Assembly: GCF_900105155.1 (NCBI RefSeq)
Contig: NZ_LT629762.1
Coordinates: forward strand, 496,001-560,000
DNA: 64,000 nucleotides
Direction of reading: 5' to 3'
From: Pseudomonas prosekii
GTDB taxonomy: Bacteria; Pseudomonadota; Gammaproteobacteria; Pseudomonadales; Pseudomonadaceae
This document shows, one piece after another, positions 24,927-39,689 of this stretch (position 1 is the first letter of the stretch; every line of letters begins with the position of its first letter). The position numbers and the translations under genes are program-made. The notes below the pieces were generated by a model. The model did not search any database. It saw only the letters and a program-made list of their open reading frames with translations, and was not told the DNA's origin.

Positions 24927-24939
24927 ACAGTAAAAGCTC

Positions 24940-24991
24940 AAAGGGGGCAGATTTATTTTCCTACACTAGAAAATAAATCTGTCCCCCTTTT
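24940..24991. repeat. Island hairpin repeat R1
   Basis: AAAGGGGGCAGATTTATTTTC, a short loop, then GAAAATAAATCTGTCCCCC and TTTT. A near-perfect inverted repeat of over 20 bp, ending in T's like a terminator. First of about nine copies confined to 24.9-39.1 kb. Confidence 0.85.
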
Positions 24992-24992
24992 G

Positions 24993-25142
24993 CTGGCACC
25001 CAATGGCGAATTATTGAGCCCCGATGGTGAAATCGTCACCTTGCGCTCCGGCGAACCAACCCCAGAACTTGATCGGGCCAGCATTCACCGCCTAGGTCCG
25101 CAACAGAACCCCTGCTATTTGAAACCCAAGGACAAGGCATGA
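24993..25142 (+). pseudogene. Orphan C-terminal tip, 49 codons
   Basis: An open frame with no start, beginning exactly where hairpin R1 ends and finishing at TGA inside the ATGA overlap with the next gene. It encodes 'LAPNGELLSPDGEI' and ends 'CYLKPKDKA'. The coupling to a probable immunity gene suggests it is the last piece of a lost effector or adaptor whose front was replaced. Family not recognised. Confidence 0.5.
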
Positions 25143-26056: not shown

Positions 26057-26100
26057 CCCCCAACTTGGGAACCAAACTATTAGAAAGCCAAGGATAAGGC

Positions 26101-27044: not shown

Positions 27045-27085
27045 ATTAAAAGTCGAGAAACTTGGAAAAGAAAGGGGACAACAAC

Positions 27086-27139
27086 AAAAGGTGACAGATT
27101 TATTTTCCGTTTATTCGAAAATTAATCCGCCCCCTTTTT
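27086..27139. repeat. Island hairpin repeat R2
   Basis: AAAAGGTGACAGATTTATTTTCC, short loop, CGAAAATTAATCCGCCCCCTTTTT. Same family as R1 with several substitutions. Confidence 0.8.
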
Positions 27140-27161
27140 GCTCTTGGAACCGAGCATCTAC

Positions 27162-27480
27162 GTGCCTAAGAAAAAATATGATCGGTTGCCTCATGCATGT
27201 GATATCGAGAGAGAACCGGGCACTGAGATAATCTACTCATCGCCAAAGCCAGTGATGACTGGAGTACAGCCCTATAGTGCACACCGGTTGCACCACTAGG
27301 CCGATGAAGTGGTCTCAGACTTTGTCATTTCCCGAGGAAGCTTTGAGTTGATGGAACGAGCCTGAGTCGGCGCGGTAATGTTCCTGTTGATTTTTATTTT
27401 TTTACTACAGGGATATGATCCTGTATAAGACGAAATTCAGAACCATTTTGGAGCAGCTGGCTGGACTTTTTACAAGCAGA
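27162..27480 (+). pseudogene. Decayed DUF6708-like gene, N-terminal part
   Basis: Nucleotide similarity to the gene at 28845 is plain over its first 320 bases ('GATATCGAGAGAGAA', 'GGAAGCTTTGAGTT', 'CAGCTGGCTGGACTT'). The frame is broken by at least two stop codons (one TAG in place of a Tyr codon, one TGA) and by changes around the first membrane helix. Similarity stops abruptly near 27480. From there to about 27625 nothing is recognised. Confidence 0.75.
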
Positions 27481-27625
27481 CTCCGAGAGAGAGCTAGATA
27501 TTAAGTTATGCACTCACCTCGAAGCCTGCGCCTACAAAACCCTCGATTAGTGTTCGTCACCACCACCGTAGTACTCAGGGCAAACTAGGACAGACCAAAG
27601 CGTCTATAGCATATGAAGAACTTAG

Positions 27626-27786
27626 CCTACCTCGTTGGCATTACCTTGGCATGAAATCGCAAAAAGCAAATTCGTCCTTTTGGGTGCTGTTGCATTCCGT
27701 TTTTCGGAATGCAACAACCGACTCAAAGGAGAATCCTGGGACGGAGCTAAATGGATCGACATTAAGCCGGAGAACGCGCATGTCTA
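27626..27786 (+). pseudogene. Orphan C-terminal tip, 53 codons
   Basis: A start-less open frame encoding 'WHEIAKSKFVLLGAVAF' and ending 'WIDIKPENAHV', whose TAA overlaps the ATG of the next DUF6708-like gene. It resembles in arrangement the tip at 24993-25142: the last piece of some upstream protein, stop overlapping the immunity-type gene. Family not recognised. Confidence 0.45.
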
Positions 27787-28832
27787 AAGATACTTATGAG
27801 AGATTACCGCACGCTGGAGACTTCGAAAAAGAGTCGGGTGTTGAGAGAGTCTACTTGTCCCCCAGGCCAGTACCTACGGGCATGCCACCCATTAGTACCC
27901 GCCAGTTACACCGTTATATTAATGAAACATATTTAGACATCTCTATCGGACAAGGAAACTTTGAGTTTCTTGCTCGAACAGGAATTGGATCAATAAATTT
28001 TATTATTACTTTGTTATTCTTTTTTTCGGGATTTGCCTCCTATCTAAGACGCAACGCTGAGCCTTTCCTGAGTGGGTGGTCAAATTTTTTCTTCAACCCA
28101 GTGCTTTGGTTGATCATTGCTGCCATCGCGACGACATATCTTTATTATTTCACGCAAGCTGCCCGACAGGTTTCCATACATCCTCCCATTCGCTTCAACA
28201 GGCAGCGCCGAGAAGTCGTATTTGTACCAAAAAAAGGTGATACTCCCCTCTATGCGCAATGGGAAGACGTTATTTCCTGCGTGTCAGCTGGAACTCATAT
28301 TAACCAGTATGCGGCAACGCCAGATTACAAGCTAATGATTGGCTTACGTGATGCTAAATCCGGCAACGTATTGTGGTCTGTTATACCGAGCGGAAATTTA
28401 AGTCTTGCCATTTCTGAGTGGGAGGCAATTCGCGCCTATATGGAGGATGGCACATCTGCCCTACCAACCGATGAACCGGACGAACTAGAAGAAGGCACAG
28501 TGGAATTTTTCCATCTGAGTCGTCGGAGCTATCGCGCAAATTATTCCTTTGTACGTTACGTTTGGGGATTTTTAACAATACAGTTTTTTAGCGGCTGGAC
28601 ATTGCCTTGCTACATTTCCGGCTGGGTCAATAACCGCACCAAGGCGGGCTTCCCCAAAGAAGTTCAAAAATGGTCACAACCTCTTCCCACTGAGCAACAT
28701 GCTATGCCTAGTGAAGAACTGCTCCGGGAAAGCACTGAAATACGGAAGGCTTTTGCCAAAGGCCAAAACATGCTGGATTACTTCAAGGTGAAGTTTGCCG
28801 AAACGACTCAAAAGTCTGAATCCGCCACTTGA
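27780..28832 (+). CDS. DUF6708-like membrane protein 3, probable immunity protein
   Basis: A 350-residue protein. The longer frame from 27651 is set aside because the N-terminus 'YERLPHAGDFEKESGVE' aligns with the next paralogue from the ATG at 27780, and GGAG precedes it. Helices lie at about 68-90 and 105-127, followed by 'PIRFNRQRREVVFVPKKG' and 'SEWEAIRAYMEDGTSALP', then a hydrophobic segment about 250-275. It is one of a tandem pair with the gene at 28845. AT content is higher than in the core regions. Confidence 0.65.
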   Translation: MSKDTYERLPHAGDFEKESGVERVYLSPRPVPTGMPPISTRQLHRYINETYLDISIGQGNFEFLARTGIGSINFIITLLFFFSGFASYLRRNAEPFLSGWSNFFFNPVLWLIIAAIATTYLYYFTQAARQVSIHPPIRFNRQRREVVFVPKKGDTPLYAQWEDVISCVSAGTHINQYAATPDYKLMIGLRDAKSGNVLWSVIPSGNLSLAISEWEAIRAYMEDGTSALPTDEPDELEEGTVEFFHLSRRSYRANYSFVRYVWGFLTIQFFSGWTLPCYISGWVNNRTKAGFPKEVQKWSQPLPTEQHAMPSEELLRESTEIRKAFAKGQNMLDYFKVKFAETTQKSESAT

Positions 28833-28844
28833 CGAGTAATACCC

Positions 28845-29885
28845 TTGGAAAATAGATACGACCGACTGCCCCGCGCAGGTGATATCGAGAGAGAATCAGG
28901 CACTGAGACAATCTATTTATCACCAAAGCCAGTACCAACTGGAGTGCAACCCTTCAGTGCTCGCCAACTACACCGCTATGCCGATGAAGTAGTCCTAGAC
29001 TTTGCCGTTTCTAGAGGAAGCTTTGAGTTTATGACTCGAGCCGGAATCGGGGCGGTAATGTTCCTGTTGATTTTTCTGTTTTTCACAACGGGTTTCGGAT
29101 CCTGGATAAGACGTGACATAGAACCTTTCTGGAGTAGCTGGCTGGACTTCTTCACAAGCATTGCCGTTTGGGGCTTTGTGGGGGCGCTGGCCACTCTCTA
29201 CCTTTGCGTTTTTTTCTTTGCAATTCGTCGGGTAAGCCATCAACCTCCTGTACGCTTCAATCGTCAGCTTCGCGAGGTCGTCTTTGTTCCCAAAAAAGGC
29301 ATGACCCCACGTTATGTACAGTGGGAGGAAGTCATTGCGAGTGTCTCGATCAGCAAATTGATCACTCAATATGCTGTCATTCCTGAATTCAAATTAATGA
29401 TTGGGCTACGTGAGACGAAAAATGGCGATGTGCTCTGGATCAGTGTTCCAAGTGGAAATTTGAATCAGGCTATCGCTGAGTGGGAGGCAATCCGTGTCTA
29501 TATGGAAGATGGACCGCGAGCCTTGCCCGAGGGGCAATCGGATGAATTCGAAGCAGGCTCGGTCGCCTACTTTCATATGTGTAGAAAAGGTTATCGCTCC
29601 CATCATTCATTGCTTCGATATCTCTTCGGCTTCCTGATCATTCAATTTTTCAGTGGTTGGACGATTCCTTGTTACCTTGCCGCTTGGATCAATAACCGCC
29701 CTAAGACAGGCTTCCCAAGGGAAGTTCTTGAGTGGTCGCTACCGCGCCCAATTGAAGAACATGCAGTACCTAGCAAGGAACTGATTAATGAAAGTGCTGA
29801 GATCAGAAAGGCATTTTCAGAAGGACAGAACCTGGTGGACTACTTCAAGATTAAGCTTGGCGAGTCGAACGAAATACCAACATAA
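28845..29885 (+). CDS. DUF6708-like membrane protein 4, probable immunity protein
   Basis: A 346-residue protein very similar to its upstream neighbour ('SPKPVPTGVQPFSARQLHRY', 'PPVRFNRQLREVVFVPKKG', 'EWEAIRVYMEDGPRALPEG'). No ATG is available at the expected start: the alignment begins at a TTG (28845), twelve bases behind the stop of the previous gene, with only a weak ribosome site. Translation may therefore depend on coupling. A decayed copy of this gene lies at 27162-27480. It closes the DUF6708 run; half of a hairpin repeat follows immediately. Confidence 0.65.
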   Translation: MENRYDRLPRAGDIERESGTETIYLSPKPVPTGVQPFSARQLHRYADEVVLDFAVSRGSFEFMTRAGIGAVMFLLIFLFFTTGFGSWIRRDIEPFWSSWLDFFTSIAVWGFVGALATLYLCVFFFAIRRVSHQPPVRFNRQLREVVFVPKKGMTPRYVQWEEVIASVSISKLITQYAVIPEFKLMIGLRETKNGDVLWISVPSGNLNQAIAEWEAIRVYMEDGPRALPEGQSDEFEAGSVAYFHMCRKGYRSHHSLLRYLFGFLIIQFFSGWTIPCYLAAWINNRPKTGFPREVLEWSLPRPIEEHAVPSKELINESAEIRKAFSEGQNLVDYFKIKLGESNEIPT

Positions 29886-29886
29886 A

Positions 29887-29903
29887 GCAGACAGATTTTT
29901 TTC
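29887..29903. repeat. Half copy of island hairpin repeat (R3)
   Basis: GCAGACAGATTTTTTTC, the left arm only, directly after the stop of the DUF6708-like gene 4. The right arm is absent. Confidence 0.5.
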
Positions 29904-29987
29904 TTTGACGGAGCTGCCCAGCGCACCCCTTCGACGTAAACACTTACACAGCAAAACCAGGAAGATTTCCCACAAGGAGCAGGACGC

Positions 29988-30674
29988 ATGTTGAAACCCA
30001 TAATCCCATTGATCTTGGCAGCCACCGCCCTCAGCGCCCAGGCAGATATCCAGGTCCAGATCTCGCCAATACCCGAACAACTGAAAAACCTGAAGCCAGT
30101 CACCATTGCGGAAAGCAGCTTGGAAGAACAAAAGCGGCTCAACCAAATCGACGAAATAGTCCAGCGCTTTAACCTGAACATTGAAGAGAAGTTCATCTAC
30201 GTCGACAAAGAAACACCCCACCCACTCCTGGGAATTTTGGATGTCGTCTACAAGGTTTATCCAGAAGAAGCCCAGTTGCAGGTGGTTAAACTCGACATCC
30301 AAAAAGGGTATGCGCGTGTCTACCCTGTCAGCCCCCAGGATATCCAGCCATATTCGAGTTTCGCGACGAGCCCGCTCGACGCCCGGATTGCCAACAATAT
30401 CCTGAGTCCCGGTGCATCCGCGGCCCGATCCAAAGCCTATTTCAAAGACTGGTACGACACTTATCAATCGTCTCGGGTCAAGCTCGCCCGAAAGGTAGTG
30501 GCGAGTGATGCCTGTGAGACTGTCACGAGTGTCGAGCTCTACAGTTTCAACGGGGATGTGTTTACTGCGTTCTGTGGCAATGGCATGGCGTTCCATCAAA
30601 CGCCGGCGCAGGTTGAAGCGGACGAGTCTATTGATCCCGCGATAAAAAAATGGGGTGTCAAACGGCCCCTGTGA
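29988..30674 (+). CDS. Exported protein of unknown function
   Basis: A 228-residue protein with a clear signal peptide ('MLKPIIPLILAATALSAQA') and AAGGAG before the ATG. The mature part has two cysteines near residues 175 and 196 that could form a disulfide in the periplasm. No domain recognised. It sits inside the T6SS island behind the DUF6708 run. A periplasmic immunity protein for an effector acting on the cell wall is one possibility, but nothing in the sequence proves it. Codon use is more GC-rich than the genes around 28 kb. Confidence 0.7.
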   Translation: MLKPIIPLILAATALSAQADIQVQISPIPEQLKNLKPVTIAESSLEEQKRLNQIDEIVQRFNLNIEEKFIYVDKETPHPLLGILDVVYKVYPEEAQLQVVKLDIQKGYARVYPVSPQDIQPYSSFATSPLDARIANNILSPGASAARSKAYFKDWYDTYQSSRVKLARKVVASDACETVTSVELYSFNGDVFTAFCGNGMAFHQTPAQVEADESIDPAIKKWGVKRPL

Positions 30675-30795
30675 GTTCGGGGCTCGTCACCCTGAGCGTT
30701 AGGTCCATTCCGATTGCGAGGCGCCCTCACGCCGAGCAGCGCATTTCTACGTGTCTGTGCGGGACGCCCATTAGACATGTGCCAGAGAGTCAACC

Positions 30796-32658
30796 ATGAA
30801 GAACTCGATACGACGCCGACACTGCGCCCTCTTTGCCGCCTTCCTGCTATCGACCGGCACCGCCGCCTGGGCAGTGCCAGCAGATCAGGCAAAAGCTCGG
30901 CCACCCAGTCCAGCTCAGTTGATGCACGAGGCACAACGTCTGAGCAGTGAAAATTCACTGCCAGAGGCCACGGTCGCCGCCCGGGCGGCCATGGAGGCAG
31001 GCCGCAAGGGTGGCGCAATGGATTTCACGGACCTCGAGGCGGGTGTGTTGCTCGTCAATCTGCTGCATCAGCAGAAGAGATACGACGAGGCCCGGAAAGC
31101 CGCCGAAGAGCAGATCGCGTATTGGGAGCAGCGAGCAGCCTCTGTCGGGTCGACTAACAGGCGCGACCCGCGCATCACAAACATGCTGGGCCTGGCCATC
31201 GAGGCAAGCATGCTGGCGGGTGAAAGAGCCGAGGTCGTACGCCTAGAGGAAAAGCTTTTTGCGGCCGTCAGTCCCTATCCCGGTCTATGGCGCTTGTCGC
31301 CGGACGAGCCGCGCTTGCGTTACGAATTAGCTGACTTCTCGATGCCACTCCTGCTGGGGCGGTGGAAACTGGCGAAGTTTGAACCCGCAAAAAAACGCGA
31401 AGCCACCACCCTCCTCCTCTATACGCAGGAGTTGGCAAACGGCCGCCTGAGCGCCGAGATTTCGCTGGCTTATGACGAAGCTCAACGCAAATACACGGCA
31501 TCGCAACGCCAGGATTGGCTCAAACCCTATCAGGAACAGCGTGAAGTTCGGGCGGTTGCATCGGCGATGCCTGACCTCCCCTTCGACGACCTGGCCGCCG
31601 TCAAACTGGGGAGGCAAGAGGAGTGTGACGGCGAGCAATGCACCAATATTCGTTGGACGGCGCTTCGCGGCGACTGGCGCATGGACATCGATGTGGTGTT
31701 CAAATCGCGGGACAAGGCCCAGGCCGTTGAGCAGATGCAAAAGTTGTTCGCTGCGCTGAACTGGCAAAGCGCACCACCGCTGTTCCGCGAACGCACTATG
31801 GCCGAGCAGACCCAATACATGGATTCAACCTGGGAGCTTCCGGGCGGCGAGTCCAAGGCTGCGGAACTGGCGAAACAGGCGTTGCCCGACGCCATTTTCC
31901 CGGAGGAAGTGGCGCGCGTGCAGACACTTATCGGCGTGTCGCAGTACCGTCACGGCGCGCTGGATGCCGCGCGCCGCTCGCTGGGTTTGGCCGTGCCTGC
32001 CTGGGAGTATGGCTTTACCTATCAACTTCTCTATGGAACTGCGCTGGATTACGCCGCTGATATCGCCTACCGCCAAGGCAGAACTCAGGAGGCCGTCGCC
32101 CTGAACCGGACGCTCATCGAATGGCAGAAAAGCGATGCTACGCTCGGCTGGATAGTGCCGAAGGATGAAAATGCGCTGGTTAACAGCTCGATGGGCATAC
32201 ATCTACCCTTGCGCGTGGGCGACTACCGCCTGAGATTGGGTACGGAATATCGCTTCTATTACGAAAATCTGCAAACAGGGGCACAACTTGGCCTCACCGT
32301 GGGTTCGGCCCAGACATCGGACGAAAAGCTTGAATCAATACTGCGTTCGTTCATGTCGGAAACGCTGGGACTGCAAGCCGGGGATGTGCGCAGGACGAAG
32401 TTTTCGCCCAAGTCGGCCGAGCCCGCAAAGTCGCCAGCAACCGGCGAGAAATGGGAGTTCGATGTTACGAAGCTGCCTGGCGATGAAGCGGCCGTATCCG
32501 ACGACTTCGTTGCTGGCGTCCAGCGCAAAACGCCCATAAAGATGGCGTTCTGGATCGTGGACCGCGAGGGGGAACGGTCGTTGCTAAGGGCGCCAATCAT
32601 GGGCGGTGAGCAAACCAGGAATGAGGCAAATCAGATCGCACAAGCGCTGTTCTGGTAG
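30796..32658 (+). CDS. Exported TPR-like protein of unknown function
   Basis: A 620-residue protein with a signal peptide (about residues 1-26, ending 'TAAWA'). The N-terminal third looks like tetratricopeptide helices ('AQRLSSENSLPEATVAARAA', 'LLHQQKRYDEARKAAEEQ'), with another such stretch at about 370-440 ('GALDAARRSLGLA', 'YRQGRTQEAVALNRTL'). The C-terminal 170 residues are predicted soluble without a known motif. GC-rich codon use like the core genome. It follows the exported 228-residue protein and may share its transcript. Function not recognised. Confidence 0.72.
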   Translation: MKNSIRRRHCALFAAFLLSTGTAAWAVPADQAKARPPSPAQLMHEAQRLSSENSLPEATVAARAAMEAGRKGGAMDFTDLEAGVLLVNLLHQQKRYDEARKAAEEQIAYWEQRAASVGSTNRRDPRITNMLGLAIEASMLAGERAEVVRLEEKLFAAVSPYPGLWRLSPDEPRLRYELADFSMPLLLGRWKLAKFEPAKKREATTLLLYTQELANGRLSAEISLAYDEAQRKYTASQRQDWLKPYQEQREVRAVASAMPDLPFDDLAAVKLGRQEECDGEQCTNIRWTALRGDWRMDIDVVFKSRDKAQAVEQMQKLFAALNWQSAPPLFRERTMAEQTQYMDSTWELPGGESKAAELAKQALPDAIFPEEVARVQTLIGVSQYRHGALDAARRSLGLAVPAWEYGFTYQLLYGTALDYAADIAYRQGRTQEAVALNRTLIEWQKSDATLGWIVPKDENALVNSSMGIHLPLRVGDYRLRLGTEYRFYYENLQTGAQLGLTVGSAQTSDEKLESILRSFMSETLGLQAGDVRRTKFSPKSAEPAKSPATGEKWEFDVTKLPGDEAAVSDDFVAGVQRKTPIKMAFWIVDREGERSLLRAPIMGGEQTRNEANQIAQALFW

Positions 32659-32731
32659 CGCCAGACGACAGCTTATTCAAAACCCTTCTGCTCTTCGTCC
32701 AGCCCGCATCGGCAGGCCGGCAAGCCAAATA

Positions 32732-33136
32732 TCAAACGGCTGCTGGCGTGCCTTGGGGGTCAAGATTGACAATCAGAGGCTTGGTCGCACTTCTGATCAT
32801 CGGCCCCAATATCAGGTTACTGCCGATCAGCATCATCACGGCCACCAGCACCAGGGTGTCGGACTTCAGGAAACCGAGAAAAGTACCGCCGAACACACAC
32901 ACCGATAGCAAGCCACTGAGCATCATGGCCAGCATCATGGGTTTAGCAGGGTTATCGAAACTCAGGAAGCGCTGCTTTTCCACGGCGGATATCACCAGTG
33001 CGGCCTTGCAGCCCTTGCACACAATGGAGTGGTCTTCGCGCAACAGCGTTTGCTGTTTCTTGCCGATGGGAAATTCCTTTTCACAGGCGTTGCAGTGGAC
33101 TTTCATGCCAATGATATTTGCGCGAGAGGAGCTCAT
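32732..33136 (-). CDS. Zinc-ribbon membrane protein
   Basis: A 134-residue protein with two CxxC pairs (C15/C18 and C40/C43), forming a small zinc ribbon, then two hydrophobic helices at about 65-87 and 93-113. AAGGAT stands before the ATG at 33136; a second ATG at residue 11 is possible. Such small ribbon-plus-membrane proteins have no common function. Convergent with the TPR-like gene. Confidence 0.65.
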   Translation of the reverse strand: MSSSRANIIGMKVHCNACEKEFPIGKKQQTLLREDHSIVCKGCKAALVISAVEKQRFLSFDNPAKPMMLAMMLSGLLSVCVFGGTFLGFLKSDTLVLVAVMMLIGSNLILGPMIRSATKPLIVNLDPQGTPAAV

Positions 33137-33252
33137 CTTGATCCTTAAGATTGGCGGAAAACATCGCCGCCGGCAGCTGCAGGTGCGCGGCGGCGGATTG
33201 TTGCATGTTTGAGCAAGGCCAACAGGCTTAGCTGTCGTCCGTTTCTCAATAA

Positions 33253-33681
33253 TTAGTTCGGCTGATCACCTATGCAATCAGGCAGATTGGGGCCGATCTC
33301 GATCATGGCCGCCGACACCGTGGGGTAGGTTCGGCCACCCCAATCCAGAGGCCCGCCAGCATTGACCAGGTCGTAGATTTCGCTTTCGCCAATCAGTTGG
33401 CCGTTGCGATGATCGTACAGACGAAAAAAAGCCGGAATTTCCCAGCGTGCAAACCAATAGACTTCTGCTTCCGGGTCCGGGAAAGCCATTGGGTGCAAGA
33501 ACCAAGGCAAGAGCCAGAAAGGTTGAAACTGCTGAACCCGATAACACCCGTTGGGGCTGATGTCAGGGGCGCCGACTGGTTTCGCCAGGCCCTTTTCCCA
33601 CCACTGCGACGCGGCCCACAGCCCGGCGCAGAACAGGGGCATACAGAGCCAAAAACGTTGACGTCGACTCAGTCTTTTCAT
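33253..33681 (-). CDS. Small membrane-anchored protein (DUF6201-like)
   Basis: A 142-residue protein with an N-terminal hydrophobic anchor (about 8-25) and a conserved-looking body: 'SPNGCYRVQQFQPFWLLP', 'FFRLYDHRNGQLIGESEIYD'. This resembles a family (DUF6201, recalled with moderate confidence) often found next to Rhs and T6SS toxin genes. It may be an immunity or accessory protein. Same strand as the zinc-ribbon gene, about 115 bases upstream of it. Confidence 0.6.
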   Translation of the reverse strand: MKRLSRRQRFWLCMPLFCAGLWAASQWWEKGLAKPVGAPDISPNGCYRVQQFQPFWLLPWFLHPMAFPDPEAEVYWFARWEIPAFFRLYDHRNGQLIGESEIYDLVNAGGPLDWGGRTYPTVSAAMIEIGPNLPDCIGDQPN

Positions 33682-33911
33682 CTTCTGATATCCATATCAA
33701 TCTGCCGAGCCGCGTCTTTTAAACGTAGCGTGGCATCGGCAAAAAAGGCCGAGCAGTTTACCTTATATGAGTTGCACAGCGAGTCTCCTTAATGCCAGAG
33801 TTGCCCGCCTTAATCGCGAGAACTACATCTGTTTCCTTTTTCGACGTGCCGGACTAATGAGATACAACAAAAATCCACAAGCGTCAGCTTGGGCGCGCAG
33901 GTTCGTGGTGA

Positions 33912-34060
33912 AATCAGAGGCGATTCAATGCTTGGCCCACGAGCCTTGAAGTCCCCTTCATCGGGTTTACCGAAACCACTTCCACAAACCTGAATTTCTA
34001 CTTGGCCGCCCTGGTAGCTTCTTACTCTGTTGGAGGGGTACTCAGCGTATCCGCCTCATC
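33912..34060 (+). other. Start-less open stretch before R4, unrecognised
   Basis: The gap 33682-34060 has no convincing gene. From 33912 a frame stays open into hairpin R4 and encodes 'PTSLEVPFIGFTETTST' followed by a hydrophobic stretch. It could be the remnant of a membrane protein cut by the repeat, or chance. Short frames at 33767-33949 look random. Confidence 0.25.
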
Positions 34061-34113
34061 AAAAGGGGACAGATTTAATTTCTATTTATTTGAGAATAAA
34101 TCCATCCCATTTT
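34061..34113. repeat. Island hairpin repeat R4
   Basis: AAAAGGGGACAGATTTAATTTC, loop, GAGAATAAATCCATCCCATTTT. Right arm somewhat decayed. From here rightwards the DNA is clearly AT-rich. Confidence 0.85.
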
Positions 34114-34128
34114 CTCTCTTGTCGGACA

Positions 34129-34558
34129 GGGAATATCAATAACGATATCAACGCCGGTGGAAGAAAAGAGACTGCGACAGAGTTCTATCGAACACAAGTT
34201 TTTGAAGAGACTAACATTCCGGGCCACTTGAGCGGAATCGACTTTAATCAGCCAGTAAATGTAGAGACGTTGAATCGAGGTAAAACGGTTTATCAATTTC
34301 AATCACCCGGAGCCCCACAAGGCAACTATTATTCTCTGAACCCTGCTACAAGCCAATCAATGCTCGGCATTGGTCCGCTCGAAGATAATCGCGCAACATG
34401 CACGGTGGAACTAAAACTGCAAGGCATTTATCGACGACCGGAAAAACGACAGTATTGAATCGACAGCCAAACCGATTGATGATACGTGGTTTGTAAAAGG
34501 GATGACGCAACCGTCATCAGGTGGGGGCACTCAAGTCCTTATCAGCGCTAAAGGCTAA
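34129..34558 (+). pseudogene. Polymorphic toxin C-terminal domain, type 46-like, frameshifted (copy 1)
   Basis: A toxin tip without its carrier. It shows 'TEFYRTQVFEETNIPGHLSG', 'QFQSPGAPQGNYYSLNP' and, after frameshifts near 34435 and 34460, 'DDTWFVKGMTQPSSGGGTQV'. This order resembles the polymorphic toxin type 46 (Ntox46) domain as I remember it. Compared with copy 2 at 37304, two single A's are missing, which break the frame; a C is also gained near the end. It starts about 15 bases behind hairpin R4 and is followed by an immunity-type gene, so it is a displaced toxin/immunity module, the toxin being dead in this form. Confidence 0.7.
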
Positions 34559-34602
34559 CTTTGAAAAAACCAAATAATTTATCAAAATCTAAGAGGCCAC
34601 GA

Positions 34603-34875
34603 ATGAAGCAAACTGATTTATATAACATGGCAAGTCGTTGCGGCTTTATGGTAACGGCGTTTTCGGACCATCCAGACTTCTTTTCATCTTGGTCATTAAA
34701 TATTGGAAAAGACGATAAAAAATACATGATAGAGCACGACAATAGAGACGGCTGGCTAATATTCTACCAAGAAAACGAAAAAAATAAATTCAAAGAAATT
34801 GATAAGAAAATATCTCATGCCATAGACGACAATGAAAAAATAAACCAGTGCGAGTCTTGGCTGTTAAGCGTTTAA
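34603..34875 (+). CDS. Probable immunity protein of the type 46-like tip (copy 1)
   Basis: A 90-residue protein, start chosen at 34603 (AGAGG upstream) since the paralogue at 37528 begins at the same point ('MKQTDLYNMASRCGF'). It is nearly identical to that paralogue over its full length and lies directly after the same kind of toxin tip. Small, charged, soluble, no signal peptide: a cytoplasmic immunity protein is likely. Family not recognised. AT-rich codon use unlike the core genes. Confidence 0.65.
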   Translation: MKQTDLYNMASRCGFMVTAFSDHPDFFSSWSLNIGKDDKKYMIEHDNRDGWLIFYQENEKNKFKEIDKKISHAIDDNEKINQCESWLLSV

Positions 34876-34938
34876 AAAGCAAATTCCAGCGAGAGATCAA
34901 CAAGAGAAAAAAGGAACAAAAGGAACAAAAGAGGGAAC

Positions 34939-35022
34939 AAAAGTGGCCAAATTTATTTCCTATGCTCGAAAATAAATCTGTCCCCTTTCCGGTCCCTAGA
35001 AAATAAACATGCGCCCTTTTCG
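34939..35022. repeat. Island hairpin repeat R5 with an extra right arm
   Basis: AAGTGGCCAAATTTATTTCC, loop, GAAAATAAATCTGTCCCCTTT up to 34989, then a second partial right arm (GAAAATAAACATGCGCCCTTTT) to 35022. The duplicate arm suggests slippage or an internal rearrangement. Confidence 0.75.
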
Positions 35023-35055
35023 CAGCAAATAAGAATTAACGAATAGGAAAATAAT

Positions 35056-35506
35056 ATGTTTGGTGAAGACAAACAAAAAATACAAAATGACTGGGAGGAT
35101 GAAATATATCCTCGCAACAACTCCATAATGTCCTACAATGGATTTTACTGCCTATTCGAGATATCTGAGCAAAGTCAGTCATTACAAAGCAAATCTTGGC
35201 AACCAGCACTAGATTATGCATTAGAGGAAATCAGCTCTGTGAGGGGTTGGCGACCCTTGACATGGTAGAAAAATTTAAGGGCCACGAGATAAAGTGCGGC
35301 GAATGTCTAGCATCCGGAGAGGATGGATTCATATCACTGACAAAAAAAGCAATGACGAATTGGTTTGCATAATTGTATTAAGCACAACAATTCCTTTCGA
35401 AAAAATAGAACTCCACGAAGATTTTATTTATGTGACTTCTTCTAACGGCACAAAGGTAAAAATCCCACCAGAACGCCCGGACAGATTCACGATACAGTGG
35501 GAGTGA
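35056..35506 (+). pseudogene. Immunity-type gene with two frameshifts
   Basis: Three overlapping frames join into one sensible protein of about 150 residues if one G is added to the GGGG run near 35243 and one A to the A run near 35350. The join runs from 'MFGEDKQKIQNDWEDE' through 'LATLDMVEKFKGHEIK' to 'TIPFEKIELHEDFIYVTSS' and 'PPERPDRFTIQWE'. Size, acidic character and position behind a hairpin repeat fit an immunity protein. The family is not recognised. Both defects are one-base contractions in homopolymers, so sequence error must be excluded. Confidence 0.55.
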
Positions 35507-35529
35507 TACGAAAACGAACACTAAAATAA

Positions 35530-35664
35530 AAAATCGAACACCATCCAGCGTTTGGAAGAGTTTTTGTCGCCCACGTTAAATATCGAGAAATAAAAACTTT
35601 TATAAAGATGATAAAGAAGCGTCGTTGCGTCAAGTCAACAATTGATTTAGCTAAAGGTCTTTAA
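35530..35664 (+). pseudogene. Orphan toxin tip before the CPCC gene, 44 codons
   Basis: A start-less frame encoding 'EHHPAFGRVFVAHVKYREIK' and ending 'STIDLAKGL' with TAA one base before the next ATG. It is basic and short, like the end of a nuclease-type toxin tip, and its position before an immunity gene repeats the pattern seen elsewhere in the island. Confidence 0.4.
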
Positions 35665-35665
35665 T

Positions 35666-36193
35666 ATGAAAAAAACATCTCGATCCGATGCGACTTACAT
35701 GCTGAGCAAACAAGCTTTAGCGTCCCTTGACAATAATACACGTGAATTAGTGCTACTGAACTGGTGGGGAATTGATGATAGCGACGAAGAATTCTCCTTA
35801 CTTTCAAAAGAGATGCAAGAACTACTTGTTTCAAACGAAGAACCTCCAAGCGATGTGCAGAATCCTCTATATGACGAATTGCTTTTGATTGCTTTGTACT
35901 CAGAGTACAAAGGCGTGACAAACTCATATTTATCTACCTCCATGAAAAAAATGGGACTTGGCGAACATGAGGTAGTTGGGTTTATCGAACCATTGGAGAC
36001 TTGCCCTTGCTGTGGCTACCGAACGATATCGTCAAGGGCAAACTATGAAATTTGTGATCTATGCAGATGGGAAGATAGTGGAGTAGTTGATCCTGAGCAG
36101 TACAGCGGCCCAAATCATATGACACTCGGGGAAGCGAAAGCGATATTTGCGAAGAGCATGTGCACACTGCCTTTATATAAATGGGCTATCTGA
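35666..36193 (+). CDS. CPCC-family cysteine-rich protein, probable immunity protein
   Basis: A 175-residue protein whose C-terminal 75 residues hold the Cys-rich CPCC domain: 'CPCCGYRTISS', 'YEICDLCRWED' and 'GPNHMTLGEA'. The four cysteines likely bind zinc. CPCC proteins are known as immunity proteins in polymorphic toxin loci (Pfam Cys_rich_CPCC, by recall). The N-terminal 100 residues are a separate acidic, helical region. It follows an orphan tip with one base between them, in AT-rich DNA. Confidence 0.8.
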   Translation: MKKTSRSDATYMLSKQALASLDNNTRELVLLNWWGIDDSDEEFSLLSKEMQELLVSNEEPPSDVQNPLYDELLLIALYSEYKGVTNSYLSTSMKKMGLGEHEVVGFIEPLETCPCCGYRTISSRANYEICDLCRWEDSGVVDPEQYSGPNHMTLGEAKAIFAKSMCTLPLYKWAI

Positions 36194-36365
36194 TAACGAC
36201 CGAGAGGTTGAGATTTATTTTTATACAATGTTTAGTCCTGAACTAAAACTAAGTTTAGTTGAAGACACAAACGGGTGTACCTTAGAGTGTATGACCCTCT
36301 CGTTCCCAAGGAAAGAAAACACCTAAATCTACGAGGCATTCAACCTAAAAAAATCGAATAATAAC

Positions 36366-36420
36366 AAAAACAGGGACAGATTTATTTTCTACGCTCGAAA
36401 ATAGATTCGCCCCCTCTTTT
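36366..36420. repeat. Island hairpin repeat R6
   Basis: CAGGGACAGATTTATTTTC, loop, GAAAATAGATTCGCCCCC and CTTTT. The toxin tip that follows begins at the very end of the repeat. The 170 bases before it (36194-36365) hold nothing recognisable. Confidence 0.8.
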
Positions 36421-36421
36421 C

Positions 36422-36571
36422 AAAGAGGATGGACTTATTCTGAGAAGTACAATTGGCGCCCCAAAAGAAGGGGATAAGTGGTCATGGCAGTATTCGGAAG
36501 ATCGTTGGGGGGAGCAAGAAGTTCTCTTGAAAGGACCCCGCAGCGGGGATATTGAGGTGTTTAAACCATGA
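36422..36571 (+). pseudogene. Orphan toxin tip, about 49 codons
   Basis: A start-less frame running out of hairpin R6: 'FKEDGLILRSTIGAPKEGDK', then 'WQYSEDRWGEQEVLL' and 'SGDIEVFKP', with TGA in an ATGA overlap with the next gene. The Trp-rich, compact end looks like the C-terminal strand region of a secreted toxin. Family not recognised. Confidence 0.5.
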
Positions 36572-36993
36572 ACATATTAGATTTCTTACAGCAGCATTTT
36601 CATCTCGCAGACGGCGGGATGAAATCGGCCCAACTATTAAAAAAATCAGCTAAAGAAAGTTTCGTTTTTAAAAATGCTTACACAATAAATAAAACTAGCG
36701 ACACGTATAAAAAAGAACTCACTATTCAAAAAGAAATTGCAAATACAACCTCATCGGAAATGCTAGGATTTGAAGAGCTTATAAGTGCGATTTCAAATAT
36801 GGCGCCTGACGCAATACTATCAATGCGTTTCATTGATAGCACTAGTTGGGACGGTCGCATTTTTTATGATGAGAAAAATACGCTCATTGGCGCAATAATT
36901 GGAAAAAAGAAAAATAAAGATTGGGAGACGCCCCCAAACTGGGATGGCTCAGAGGAAATGCTACGAACATACAACGCCCAAAAAGACACCTAA
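36568..36993 (+). CDS. Probable immunity protein, unrecognised family
   Basis: A 141-residue soluble protein ('MNILDFLQQHFHLADGGMKS', 'FIDSTSWDGRIFYDE', 'DWETPPNWDGSEEM'). It starts in a 4-base overlap with a toxin tip, so it was co-translated with the original toxin. No signal peptide or membrane segment. Immunity function is inferred from this coupling and from the identical arrangement of neighbouring modules. AT-rich codons. Confidence 0.6.
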   Translation: MNILDFLQQHFHLADGGMKSAQLLKKSAKESFVFKNAYTINKTSDTYKKELTIQKEIANTTSSEMLGFEELISAISNMAPDAILSMRFIDSTSWDGRIFYDEKNTLIGAIIGKKKNKDWETPPNWDGSEEMLRTYNAQKDT

Positions 36994-37250
36994 AACCCTT
37001 ATGAAACGGCACACCCATGCACGAACCGGTCTCCAGTCAAGGCTAAGGTGTTTCTATTTCGTTTAAACGCATGTCGAATCGGGATAAAGCGATAGAAGGC
37101 AGCATCATTACATAATGAAAGATGCGGTTCCTCAACAGCTACAGTTGCACTACTTAAGACAAAAATGGAAAAGTACCTTTTTAAGCCAAGTCGTAAACTT
37201 ACCTTCCGACTGTAAAACGCAAGGACCGAGAAACAGTACACTTTTACCAA
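36994..37250. other. Non-coding gap, nothing recognised
   Basis: About 260 bases without a credible frame, RNA or repeat, between the immunity-type gene at 36568 and hairpin R7. Confidence 0.4.
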
Positions 37251-37302
37251 CAAAGGGAGACAGATTTGTTTTCCATTCTCAAAATAAATCCGTCCCCTTT
37301 TC
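37251..37302. repeat. Island hairpin repeat R7
   Basis: CAAAGGGAGACAGATTTGTTTTCC, loop, CAAAATAAATCCGTCCCCTTTT. The toxin tip resumes two bases after it. Confidence 0.85.
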
Positions 37303-37303
37303 G

Positions 37304-37517
37304 CAGAGATAATCGCGCAGCAGGAACGGTGGAACTAAAACTGCAAGGCATTTATCGAACGACAGAAAAAACGCCAGTATTGAAATCGACAGCCAAATCG
37401 ATTGATGATACGTGGTCTGTAAAAGGAATGACGCAACCGTCATCAGGTGGGGGTACTCAAGTCTTTAGCAGCGCTAAAGGTAACTTTGAAAAAACCCAGT
37501 TATTTATCAAAATCTAA
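37304..37517 (+). pseudogene. Polymorphic toxin tip, type 46-like (copy 2, last about 70 residues)
   Basis: Contains 'DNRAAGTVELKLQGIYRTT' and 'DDTWSVKGMTQPSSGGGTQV', aligning with copy 1 at 34385-34558 but with the frame intact to the stop. The front half of the domain is absent: similarity to copy 1 starts right where hairpin R7 ends. It is therefore a remnant, not a working toxin. Confidence 0.7.
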
Positions 37518-37527
37518 GAGACTACGA

Positions 37528-37800
37528 ATGAAGCAAACTAATTTATATAACATGGCAAGTCGTTGCGGCTTTAAGGTAACGGTGTTTTCGGACCATCCAG
37601 ACTTCTTTTCATCTTGGTCGTTAAACATCAGAAAAGACGATAAAAAATACATGATAGAGAACGACGGTAGAGACGGCTGGCTGATGTTCTACCAAGAAAA
37701 CGAACCAAATAAATTCAAAGAAATTGATAAGAAAATATCTCATGCCATGGACGACAATGAAAAAATGAACCAGTGCGAGTCTTGGCTGTTAAGCGTTTAA
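37528..37800 (+). CDS. Probable immunity protein of the type 46-like tip (copy 2)
   Basis: A 90-residue near-identical paralogue of the protein at 34603, differing at about a dozen positions and ending in the same 'NQCESWLLSV'. It has the same ribosome-site region and the same position behind a tip. The pair 37304-37800 is a second copy of the unit 34385-34875, about 2.9 kb apart in direct orientation. Confidence 0.65.
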   Translation: MKQTNLYNMASRCGFKVTVFSDHPDFFSSWSLNIRKDDKKYMIENDGRDGWLMFYQENEPNKFKEIDKKISHAMDDNEKMNQCESWLLSV

Positions 37801-37826
37801 AAAGTAAAGTCCCGCGAGACGTCAAC

Positions 37827-37876
37827 AAAAAGGGGACAGATTTATTTTCTGTTTGAAAATAAATCTGTCCCCTTTT
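37827..37876. repeat. Island hairpin repeat R8, best copy
   Basis: The cleanest copy: a 22-bp perfect inverted repeat, AAAAGGGGACAGATTTATTT continuing TC, a 5-base loop TGTTT, and the exact reverse complement ending CCCCTTTT. A strong hairpin with a T-run on either strand, thus also a possible two-way terminator. Confidence 0.9.
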
Positions 37877-37878
37877 CT

Positions 37879-38037
37879 CTCAGTGTTGGCCAGCAGGATC
37901 GCAACCTGTTCCAGCGCCGCTACACCTACGATGCCAATGGCAACCTCGCCGGCATCGACGACAGCCGCAGAGGCACCCTGGCAAAGGCGAACGAGACATC
38001 TGGGGTGGAGGCCGAGAAGGGCGCGAAGGGAAAATAA
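37879..38037 (+). pseudogene. Rhs core sliver with short tip
   Basis: Start-less frame beginning two bases behind R8: 'SVGQQDRNLFQRRYTYDANG' then 'NLAGIDDSRRGTLA', an unmistakable Rhs/YD-repeat stretch, followed by 17 unrelated residues ('KANETSGVEAEKGAKGK') and stop. The Rhs part is GC-rich, unlike its surroundings. It shows that the island descends at least partly from an Rhs gene. Confidence 0.75.
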
Positions 38038-38061
38038 AAACGGAATAATTGGAGCACTGAT

Positions 38062-38397
38062 ATGAAACACAATCAATCTATCAAGATAAACGACCTGATC
38101 GATTTCTTAAAGGCTCAGAAAAAAGAACTGACCTATTGTGTTTATGGGAAAGGATCATCGGACCAAGCGACGCTGAAAACCGACTGCGTGATTGATGAAT
38201 ATTCGGAGATTACCGATGACGACGAAGAGATTTTCCCAAAGTACATCACTCAAAACAATCTTGAGTTTTGGTTTACCGACGAACTCTTGGAGGATGTTAC
38301 ATTCAACGCACTGAAGCAAAAAATGTCTGCTACAAATGAGGAAATACTAAAAGCCATTAAACATTATAATGAGCACGACAGCTTCATGAAACCATGA
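38062..38397 (+). CDS. Probable immunity protein (possibly DUF7716-like)
   Basis: A 111-residue acidic soluble protein ('INDLIDFLKAQKKELTYCVY', 'DYSEITDDDEE'-type acidic loop, 'WFTDELLEDVTFNALKQ'). GGAG lies before the ATG and the gene begins 25 bases after the Rhs sliver. The N-terminal pattern recalls DUF7716-type small proteins at Rhs loci, with low certainty. Immunity is inferred from context. Confidence 0.5.
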   Translation: MKHNQSIKINDLIDFLKAQKKELTYCVYGKGSSDQATLKTDCVIDEYSEITDDDEEIFPKYITQNNLEFWFTDELLEDVTFNALKQKMSATNEEILKAIKHYNEHDSFMKP

Positions 38398-38516
38398 AAA
38401 TACAGCACACAAAAATAACCGCTTTCCCTTTTTGCTTGCTGAATGGGAATGCAGCTAGACAAGGTTCGGAAATTGCCCCGCCGAAACGATAGGCTCCCAT
38501 AAACTTGCACACATAA

Positions 38517-38573
38517 ATTAGTAGGCTGGACGGCGATTGGAAGGCGGTTCCGATGCTCTACCTTCAGGACTAA
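38517..38573 (+). pseudogene. Possible toxin tip remnant, 18 codons
   Basis: A very short start-less frame, 'RLDGDWKAVPMLYLQD', ending 17 bases before the next gene. It fits the tip/immunity pattern but is too short to be certain. The rest of 38398-38590 holds nothing recognised. Confidence 0.2.
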
Positions 38574-38590
38574 AACTGAGGAAACAAAAA

Positions 38591-38980
38591 ATGGGGTCGA
38601 AAAAAATCGTTTCTATTTGGACGGCCAATACCGATTGGGAACCGTCTACTCTTCGAGATGTGATGAGCGCAGAGTATTCTGACGACGGAGACTATCTTGG
38701 TTCTGAGTTCGATAAGGCTTTCTCACTTGGCTTTGTTGACGATGACAGTGTCGAAGCAGATAAAATCGAGCCAACCAATTCTCTAATTAATGCAATTGAC
38801 GGATGCTCATACGACCTTGACATCGCGGCTGACATGAAAGATAAAAAAGCTCCTCTGATCGATGCGGCTATAGACACCATAGTTGCAATCTACGACTACT
38901 CCTTCTCAGGCACTACTCAAAATACTAAAATCAGAAACAAGCTCTTTACATACCGAGGAAGCTTTGAATACCAAGACTAA
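38591..38980 (+). CDS. Probable immunity protein (Imm22-like)
   Basis: A 129-residue acidic protein. A longer frame from 38537 exists, but GAGGAA before the ATG at 38591 and the N-terminus 'KKIVSIWTANTDW' support the shorter form. The opening strand with 'SIW', the 'EYSDDGDYLGSEFDKAF' segment and size recall the Imm22 family of immunity proteins (moderate to low certainty). Last intact gene of the AT-rich part. Confidence 0.5.
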   Translation: MGSKKIVSIWTANTDWEPSTLRDVMSAEYSDDGDYLGSEFDKAFSLGFVDDDSVEADKIEPTNSLINAIDGCSYDLDIAADMKDKKAPLIDAAIDTIVAIYDYSFSGTTQNTKIRNKLFTYRGSFEYQD

Positions 38981-39003
38981 ACTCTCAGAGAACAGAACGT
39001 AAG

Positions 39004-39045
39004 GAATAGATATATTTCTGCATTCTTAAATAAATCTGTCTTTTG
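39004..39045. repeat. Island hairpin repeat R9, decayed
   Basis: GAATAGATATATTTCTGCATTCTTAAATAAATCTGTCTTTTGG: the right arm (AAATAAATCTGTC) is clear, the left arm poor. It marks the right end of the hairpin-bearing island. Confidence 0.5.
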
Positions 39046-39054
39046 GAATTCCCT

Positions 39055-39293
39055 ATGAACAGTAATCCGACTTATAAAAGTATATGGAAATTTCCTATCC
39101 TGGCATCTACGATAAAGTCGGCCCAGGCCCCAAAGGCAGTGAACAGACGGGTGCCTTAGGTGATGGCGTGTGCCACTGCGTTGAGCTCACAATTCCCCGT
39201 GATGAATGGCAGCGCACAGCTCCGGACCAAGGTCAAGTACCGTGCGCGCCGATGACCAAAAACCCTGATCAGGGAGTATTCGCAGTTTCCTGA
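39055..39293 (+). other. Island edge, unrecognised open frames
   Basis: A 69-codon frame at 39084-39293 ('YPGIYDKVGPGPKGSE') and another from ATG 39055 overlap. Neither has a good ribosome site or known relative, and composition turns GC-rich here. They are probably remnants at the island border. The first overlaps the end of the small minus-strand gene at 39269. Confidence 0.2.
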
Positions 39294-39436
39294 GCAGTAG
39301 ATTCTCCACTCTCAGTCCCCTTCCCGCTGTCCTCACGCTTCTTCGGATCAGTCGGGCGCAACGCATCGTTATCACGCTCGACTTCACCCGGTGGCCGTGG
39401 TTCGTCGGGGTGTTCGCTTTGGTTAATCGGTTTCAT
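39269..39436 (-). CDS. Small hydrophilic protein, 55 residues
   Basis: Begins 'MKPINQSEHPDEPRPPGEVE' with GAGGAG eight bases before the ATG, and ends 'SGESTAQETANTP'. It is rich in Pro, Glu and Asp, thus probably disordered. Too short for the usual open-frame cut-offs. Similar small proteins are common in pseudomonads, function unknown. It follows the 80-residue protein gene on the same strand by about 10 bases, so the two form an operon. Confidence 0.6.
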   Translation of the reverse strand: MKPINQSEHPDEPRPPGEVERDNDALRPTDPKKREDSGKGTESGESTAQETANTP

Positions 39437-39446
39437 TCGAGTCTCC

Positions 39447-39689
39447 TCACGCTTCGGGGTCGTCGACTTCTTCGGCGACGTTGATGGCCGGCGAATCCTT
39501 ATGGGATTGCTCGGCTTTGGCTTTCAGGGTTTGCCATTGTTGGAGGTCGATGGCGCCCTGCCCCAGCAAGTCGTCGGCGACGCGCAGCAGTTCGCTGTAA
39601 TGCGCGTCGGGGGATTGTTGCCAGTAGGCTTTGTCCTCGAACAGACGTTGCCAGGTGTCGAGGTCCGGGGCTTTGAGGTCGTCGCTCAT
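39447..39689 (-). CDS. Small conserved hypothetical protein, 80 residues
   Basis: An acidic helical protein ('MSDDLKAPDLDTWQRLFEDK', 'SELLRVADDLLGQGAID'). GGAGTG lies before the ATG. No motif for function. It sits between the small 55-residue gene and the ABC-transporter lipoprotein gene, all on the minus strand. Confidence 0.65.
   Translation of the reverse strand: MSDDLKAPDLDTWQRLFEDKAYWQQSPDAHYSELLRVADDLLGQGAIDLQQWQTLKAKAEQSHKDSPAINVAEEVDDPEA

What the first reader, a model, noticed from the sequence alone, without database searches (positions are those of the whole stretch)
34061..39045. Array of hairpin repeat / toxin tip / immunity gene modules
Five times a near-identical hairpin (R4, R5, R6, R7, R8) is followed by a start-less C-terminal toxin piece and/or an immunity-type gene. 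In R6, R7 and R8 the coding similarity or open frame begins within 1-3 bases of the repeat end. The tips often end in an ATGA or one-base junction with the immunity gene (36571/36568, 35664/35666). Orphan Rhs/CDI tip arrays are known, but a hairpin placed exactly at each join suggests the repeat is the recombination or insertion point by which modules were captured, or that replaced the toxin fronts. This is the strongest candidate for an undescribed arrangement in the window.
Basis: partly seen in the sequence, partly recalled or inferred. Interest (0 to 1): 0.85.

Follow-up and report, generated by a model that had tools for sequence, protein, structure and literature searches.

The report
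Transposon hairpins dividing toxin-immunity gene arrays
Short mobile-DNA hairpins often sit right at the joins between spare toxin and immunity genes in this Pseudomonas-type genome and in relatives, which points to a little-studied jumping-gene family as a possible shaper of bacterial weapon arsenals.

Summary
The hairpin is the paired terminal repeat of a known, little-studied transposase class, TIRYT (RAYT-like Y1 transposases; TIR motif GGGGWSAS). In relatives the same 22-nt arm flanks such a gene; the window's genome shows only gene-less hairpins. In 37 complete genomes of the genus, 29 of 60 hairpin regions hold a VgrG, Rhs, T6SS-effector or CdiA homolog against 2 of 40 random regions. 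Transposase loci lie within 25 kb of a TPS-domain (CdiA-type) gene in 11 of 16 cases, against 2 of 70 for other Y1 transposases. Homology between loci stops 1-12 nt from a hairpin at 90 of 398 block ends (intergenic-placed null in the same band: mean 15, maximum 38). One tip (Ntox46) is fused to an Rhs frame in a relative, and the window copy begins 9 nt after hairpin R4. No gene except the transposase was found inside an arm pair, so cassette transposition is not shown. Best reading: hairpins inserted by TIRYT, then acting as breakpoints where toxin fronts were lost and immunity modules reshuffled. Element and arrays are known kinds; my literature searches listed no report of their linkage.

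The parts
24939..24990 (.). R1 hairpin, between gene 23697-24926 (no family) and DUF6708 genes
27086..27138 (.). R2 hairpin between DUF6708 genes
29883..29904 (+). R3, single decayed arm (6 mismatches) at the end of the last DUF6708 gene
34061..34113 (.). R4 hairpin; homology to the Rhs-borne Ntox46 tip starts at 34123
34123..34455 (+). start-less Ntox46 toxin tip; its open frame stops at profile position 118 of 157
34603..34875 (+). putative immunity gene of the Ntox46 tip; a homolog follows the same tip in L166
   Evidence: no Pfam or NCBIfam match (77, 78)
34939..35020 (.). R5 hairpin (34939-34989) plus an extra - arm (34999-35020, 4 mismatches)
35056..35506 (+). open frames 35056-35268 and 35294-35506 (possibly one broken immunity-type gene; inference)
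35666..36193 (+). gene with a Cys_rich_CPCC domain; homologous DNA in G137 covers window 35632-36189
36368..36418 (.). R6 hairpin; the next base begins the start-less 50-aa piece
36419..36571 (+). start-less 50-aa tip, ATGA overlap with the next gene
36568..36993 (+). putative immunity gene, no family
37252..37301 (.). R7 hairpin; the truncated second Ntox46 module begins within 6 nt of it
37302..37517 (+). second, 5'-truncated Ntox46 tip (profile 99-157)
37528..37800 (+). second copy of the Ntox46-linked immunity gene (start read off by likeness to 34603)
37828..37876 (.). R8 hairpin, perfect 22-bp arms, 5-nt loop
37877..38036 (+). slice of Rhs-type coding sequence with an unrelated tail; Rhs likeness is 31 residues
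38062..38397 (+). DUF7716 immunity-type gene; homolog at L100 6687-7022 beside a hairpin
38514..39025 (+). Imm22 (DUF4284) cassette; homologous DNA in L079 and L100 lies between hairpins, with other neighbours
39005..39040 (.). R9, decayed hairpin at the right end of the Imm22 cassette

Best explanation
Each hairpin is a non-autonomous TIR pair of a TIRYT element, a Y1 (HUH) tyrosine transposase flanked by inverted 22-nt arms. In Pseudomonas these elements concentrate in polymorphic-toxin loci (CDI, Rhs, T6SS effector/immunity arrays). Hairpins inserted between and inside modules. Short like arms then served as join points: toxin fronts were deleted up to a hairpin, and immunity or tip-immunity modules were brought next to new neighbours at hairpins, giving arrays punctuated by the repeat. 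Shown: hairpin sequence = TIR of the transposase; concentration in toxin loci; homology breaks at hairpin edges. Inferred: that insertion came first, that recombination or template switching between hairpins made the joins, and that keeping immunity genes is what selection favours.
For: Arms flank transposase genes: of the 23 loci L135-L157 (>=63% identity), 22 have both arms within 265 nt (<=6 mismatches) and 16 within 120 nt (<=3 mismatches). Regions: 29 of 60 vs 2 of 40, Fisher 1.4e-6. Transposase loci within 25 kb of a TPS-domain gene: 11 of 16 vs 2 of 70 other Y1 loci; the zone is 1.9% of the genomes; 5 of 8 for the clade with these arms, 6 of 8 for the more distant clade. A CdiA homolog in 20 of 32 transposase regions (10 of the 20 fetched for the transposase alone) vs 0 of 40 random. 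Block ends 1-12 nt from a hairpin: 90 of 398 vs mean 15.2, max 38 in 500 intergenic placements; beyond the join 85 of 86 tested pairs show no homology. Same Ntox46 tip, complete, fused to RHS repeats in L166. 264-bp Rhs-type slice between two hairpins in L125, uninterrupted in nine other loci. Imm22 cassette in three genomes with different neighbours.
Against: 31 of 60 hairpin regions have no delivery gene by this test. Of nine such regions viewed, L199, L207, L210, L218 and L230 look like toxin/immunity loci by eye, L200, L227 and L231 ordinary, L223 unclear. Hairpin clusters without a transposase gene lie near a TPS gene in only 5 of 48 cases. Outside Pseudomonadaceae 1 of 81 hairpin loci has a marker, against 10 of 38 inside (markers are Pseudomonas proteins). 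Of nine N-less Rhs/CdiA fragments as I judged them, four have no hairpin at the 5' edge. If positions inside hairpins are counted in the nulls, they rise to mean 47 (max 76) and 37.5 (max 70) against 90. At <=3 nt the first test showed no excess (40 vs 42.4). No before/after pair was found. No transposase of this clade was found in the window's genome.
Confidence: 0.6

Rival explanations
1. Neutral tolerance: the element inserts anywhere harmless, and AT-rich, decaying immunity arrays simply offer more harmless spacer DNA. The joins coincide with hairpins because both lie in spacers.
For: Hairpin centres are mostly intergenic, 179 of 227. No target motif outside the arms. Ordinary intergenic copies exist (L200, L227, L231, L003, L004).
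Against: A null that keeps hairpins in intergenic DNA gives a mean of 15 ends at 1-12 nt against 90 seen. Other Y1 transposases of the same genomes are rarely near TPS genes, 2 of 70. Spacer length and AT content were not matched, so this rival is weakened, not closed.
Confidence: 0.2
2. Cassette capture: the Y1 transposase moves hairpin-gene-hairpin units as single-stranded cassettes, an integron-like system for immunity modules.
For: 22 of 157 homology blocks have hairpins at both ends, shifted mean 1.6, max 12 (10 of the 22 involve the one L125 slice). The same cassettes appear with different neighbours (window, L079, L100). Transposase genes reside in CDI arrays.
Against: No gene other than the transposase between a + arm and the next - arm at 46-1200 nt. 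No X-h-gene-h-Y versus X-h-Y pair was found. No such transposase found in the window genome.
Confidence: 0.15
3. Terminators or insulators: hairpins are kept because they stop transcription between modules.
For: Strong stems with A/T flanks in R1, R7 and R8; some follow stop codons closely (34875/34939, 37800/37828).
Against: The AT half of the arm is conserved too (though those arms were chosen at <=3 mismatches), the six arm letters not fixed by the search pattern mostly agree in other phyla, and the arm differs with the transposase clade. A terminator needs only pairing. R2 and R4-R6 fold more weakly.
Confidence: 0.05

Closest known systems
TIRYT / TIRtron TIR families (Di Nocera et al. 2013, PMC3733652; mostly RAYT group 1 = TnpA_REP subclass 2.1, Quentin et al. 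2018, PMC6006769)
   Same: GGGGWSAS motif, inverted arms around a Y1 transposase gene, copies as dimers and clusters
   Different: The passages read do not mention CDI, Rhs or module joins; in the window genome no transposase of this clade was found
Orphan cdiA-CT/cdiI and rhs-CT modules (Poole et al. 2011, PMC3150448; Ruhe et al. 2016, PMC4927057)
   Same: Toxin tips, each followed by an immunity gene, downstream of a full delivery gene
   Different: In the passages read the shared border is a coding motif (VENN), and transposase/integrase genes are mentioned only in general; here the border is an extragenic hairpin of one named element
T6SS immunity-gene arrays of Vibrio cholerae (Kirchberger et al. 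2017, PMC5361080) and polyimmunity loci (Zhang et al. 2012, PMC3482391)
   Same: Strings of different immunity genes gathered by horizontal transfer
   Different: In the passages read they compare with integrons without evidence of an integrase, or point to nearby XerC/D recombinases; no repeat at each join is described there
Correia elements and DUS inverted repeats in Neisseria T6SS clusters (PMC10210955)
   Same: MITE-like or inverted repeats in and around effector/immunity clusters
   Different: Different repeat families; no breakpoint statistics in the passages read
Integron cassette arrays (recalled)
   Same: Hairpin-forming sites between cassettes
   Different: No integrase shown here, symmetric arms, no cassette excision shown

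Membership tests
TIRYT-type TIR element (non-autonomous copy) | TIR with GGGGWSAS motif | tested here: met
   GGGGACAG at arm positions 5-12 (the 347 arms were chosen at <=3 mismatches); motif from PMC3733652 (passages)
TIRYT-type TIR element (non-autonomous copy) | same TIRs in inverted orientation around a RAYT-like Y1 transposase gene | tested here: met
   22 of 23 loci L135-L157 within 265 nt; Pfam Y1_Tnp for the L013 and L014 proteins, NCBIfam REP_Tyr_transpos just under its cut-off (74.6 of 80 bits). Not found in the window's own genome
TIRYT-type TIR element (non-autonomous copy) | HUH motif and C-terminal HTH of subclass 2.1 | tested here: inconclusive
   H-V-H seen by eye in the L013 protein; no HTH domain among Pfam matches up to E 0.01
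TIRYT-type TIR element (non-autonomous copy) | mobility | tested here: inconclusive
   two empty-site searches in 38 relatives met only divergent flanks; no within-species Pseudomonas set at hand
GTAG REP / REPIN | GTAG tetranucleotide tag beside a small palindrome | tested here: not met
   arm consensus AAAAGGGGACAGATTTATTTT has no GTAG and no motif stands just outside it
Orphan toxin-tip/immunity array | start-less toxin domains next to immunity genes, related to tips of full delivery proteins | tested here: met
   Ntox46 tips, complete Ntox46 fused to RHS repeats in L166; Imm22 and DUF7716 genes
Integron | integrase plus attC sites giving precise cassette excision | not tested
   no integrase or attC search was made; no excision pair seen in the loci compared
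Rfam structured RNA | match at the gathering score | tested here: not met
   0 matches in 24000-39500

The most novel reading that the evidence does not exclude
TIRYT transposases and their hairpins form an exchange system specialised on polymorphic-toxin loci: hairpins act as single-stranded join sites through which immunity and tip modules are gained, trimmed and swapped, an HUH-based counterpart of the integron, with the transposase resident in CDI loci.
Probability: 0.2. Interest if true: 0.9.

Novelty: new variant of a known kind. Interest (0 to 1): 0.68.

Why it matters
How immunity-gene arrays and orphan toxin tips are assembled is open: the Vibrio study compares them with integrons but states there is no evidence of an integrase (PMC5361080, passages), and Zhang et al. 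point to nearby recombinases as a possibility (PMC3482391, passages). A named transposase family that often sits in CDI loci, with its repeats at module borders, gives that question a concrete candidate that can be tested in laboratory strains. It also suggests a niche for transposase-like proteins whose functions are described as largely unknown (PMC6006769, passages).

Tried and rejected
Plain REP or Rfam element: no GTAG tag, no Rfam match. A dispersed repeat with no locus preference: rejected for this genus by the region test, but closer to true outside Pseudomonadaceae (1 of 81, with Pseudomonas markers).

Genes as cargo inside a TIR pair: none seen at spacings of 46-1200 nt apart from the transposase; the + ... 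- pairs without it are nine in L219/L220 and one in L036, all with 71-72 nt between the arms. Exact excision pairs: none. Empty sites in relatives: flanks too divergent; the conserved stretch beside the 338-kb hairpin is a tRNA-Gln gene. Viral contigs for the DUF7716 protein: no relative. Plasmids, phages and E. coli: no match to a 75-nt query holding R8, with E-value limits that only near-perfect copies would pass.

The first junction test (80 loci) included transposase blocks, which end at TIRs trivially; it was redone without them on 79 loci with 227 hairpins. Hairpins were masked, so an observed end cannot fall inside one; nulls that count inside positions are higher and are given under evidence against.

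Limits of counts. Of the 60 regions, 59 come from the arms (one of them, L015, was fetched earlier) and one (L252); five are from the window's own genome, L253 being the window itself; L227 and L228 overlap; L217 has no 22-nt arm at <=4 mismatches; one control region (L284) has an arm. The 40 controls were drawn at random from genomes that hold arms. Markers were six Pseudomonas delivery proteins, taken from the window, L013, L093, L097 and L100: leaving out loci that supplied a marker gives 28 of 59 regions, 7 of 35 Pseudomonadaceae 8-kb loci and 19 of 31 transposase regions. The 32 transposase regions are part of the matches, and 12 of them had been fetched because of hairpins; the others were not fetched. 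TPS-domain hits include adhesin-type genes besides CdiA. Junction loci were chosen because they hold hairpins and are not independent by descent; one pair of loci in different genomes (L051, L221) shares 792 bp at 99%. The one search count leaves out L158, a gene fragment with only the upstream arm.
Full report
What is there. The window holds a VgrG gene (by likeness), a T6SS effector of BTH_I2691/VasX type (both family matches under their cut-offs), four DUF6708 genes just over the cut-off, and from 34 kb on an array of toxin pieces and immunity-type genes. Hairpins R1, R2 and R4-R8, with decayed R3 and R9, lie among them. The arm consensus is AAAAGGGGACAGATTTATTTT(C). In the 6.09-Mb genome an 18-nt core (up to 1 mismatch) has 13 hits, 8 of them in the window; one lies in another VgrG/effector/immunity-type cluster at 2998 kb (L002) and four at three other sites, one of them 7 nt from a tRNA-Gln gene. 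The genus is Pseudomonas by inference: contig C253 of G053, in the same genus group, has the length and hairpin position of a P. frederiksbergensis contig.

What the hairpin is. In some of these loci the two arms enclose a RAYT-like transposase instead of a short loop. In 199 genomes of the genus, 43 have this transposase at E<=1e-30. Of the 23 loci L135-L157 (>=63% identity), 22 have both arms within 265 nt (<=6 mismatches) and 16 within 120 nt (<=3 mismatches); the exception, L136, lacks a downstream arm. In the printed flanks of six more distant homologs (42-44%), four show GGGGTCAGACCAC and two a GGG(G)ACAGACCAC variant instead (by eye). This matches TIRYTs with GGGGWSAS terminal repeats (PMC3733652 and PMC6006769, passages). 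The window genome has three Y1 transposases, none with these arms (<=5 mismatches) in 1.5-kb flanks, and no match to this clade at E<=1e-30. So the hairpins here are gene-less copies.

Where it lives. In 37 complete genomes the exact 16-nt arm occurs 119 times, in 26 genomes. Sixty 20-kb hairpin regions were compared with 40 random regions: a VgrG, T6SS effector, Rhs or CdiA homolog is present in 29 of 60 versus 2 of 40 (Fisher 1.4e-6). Of nine negative regions with at least four arms that I viewed, L199, L207, L210, L218 and L230 look like toxin/immunity loci by eye, L200, L227 and L231 ordinary, L223 unclear. For the transposase genes, 11 of 16 loci lie within 25 kb of a TPS-domain gene, against 2 of 70 loci of other Y1 transposases in the same genomes; that zone is 1.9% of the sequence. 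The clade with these arms gives 5 of 8 and the more distant clade 6 of 8. Hairpin clusters without a transposase gene give 5 of 48. A CdiA homolog is present in 20 of 32 fetched transposase regions, 10 of 20 among those fetched for the transposase alone, and in 0 of 40 random ones. In the separate 8-kb set, 10 of 38 Pseudomonadaceae loci and 1 of 81 other loci have a delivery marker; random tiles 2 of 120. The link is therefore a Pseudomonas matter as far as tested.

Whether joins fall at hairpins. With hairpins masked and transposase blocks removed, 398 internal ends of homology blocks among 79 hairpin loci were measured: 90 lie 1-12 nt from a hairpin, 78 of them within 7 nt. Placing hairpins at random intergenic positions gives a mean of 15.2 ends at 1-12 nt and a maximum of 38 in 500 trials; counting positions inside hairpins too, 47.2 and 76. 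Circular shifts give 37.5 and 70. Beyond the hairpin the two sequences show no homology in 85 of 86 pairs tested. Fifty different hairpins in 31 loci mark such ends. Blocks with hairpins at both ends: 22 of 157, shifted mean 1.6, maximum 12; 10 of the 22 involve one slice in L125.

Examples. The Ntox46 tip at 34123 is part of an open frame with RHS repeats and a complete Ntox46 domain in L166; the window's copy starts 9 nt after R4, and its second copy starts within 6 nt of R7, at profile position 99. The Rhs-type slice behind R8 starts at the first base after the hairpin. L125 has a 264-bp Rhs-type slice between two hairpins that is uninterrupted in nine other loci. The Imm22 cassette 38514-39025 recurs in L079 and L100 with hairpins near its ends and other neighbours. 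Of nine N-less Rhs/CdiA fragments that I judged secondary in the loci examined, five abut a hairpin (within 23 nt) and four do not.

How it probably works. Close arm pairs are nearly always + then - (147 of 157 in the two Pseudomonas sets), and no gene but the transposase was found between a + arm and the next - arm at 46-1200 nt. The mobile unit is thus the hairpin, or the hairpin with transposase; immunity genes lie between units. I take the hairpins as insertions that became join points, by recombination or by the transposase's own strand transfer. Which of these acts is not shown, nor is the order of events.

What is known. Orphan modules, immunity arrays and TIRYTs are each described. In nine literature searches no listed row ties this transposase or its repeat to toxin loci; five of them listed only part of their hits. 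The arm letters occur in no held paper, and no held paper has both 'REP-associated tyrosine transposase' and 'contact-dependent'. Passages were read of PMC6006769, PMC3733652, PMC10210955, PMC5361080, PMC3150448, PMC4927057, PMC4725963 and PMC3482391; other papers were seen in listings only. Bertels et al. 2017 was not seen; its groups are taken from passages of PMC6006769.

Noticed in passing
L219 8381-12226, L220 8517-11619: A longer form of the element, 115-116 bp with 71-72 nt between the arms, nine copies in two regions of one genome that also hold CdiA homologs.
   Followed up: partly
L159-L164: More distant transposases (42-44% identity) have arms of other sequence (GGGGTCAGACCAC type); the distant clade is near TPS genes as well, 6 of 8 loci.
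   Followed up: partly
L001 5185-5331: A hairpin ends 7 nt from a tRNA-Gln gene, a usual integration landmark.
   Followed up: partly
L168 354-1334: In another genome a DDE transposase gene lies within the same Ntox46 tip, splitting it.
   Followed up: partly
L019, L027, L041, L061, L064, L071, L087, L089, L091 and others (JACRHF contigs): One Nitrospirae MAG holds many copies of the hairpin, so the element thrives far from Pseudomonas; none of these loci met the delivery-marker test.
   Followed up: no
window 23697-29885: Four DUF6708 genes behind the T6SS effector, with hairpins R1 and R2 before and among them; probable immunity array (inference).
   Followed up: partly
L066 1017-1058: A record titled Klebsiella pneumoniae MAG carries the hairpin; possibly a mislabelled or chimeric bin.
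   Followed up: no
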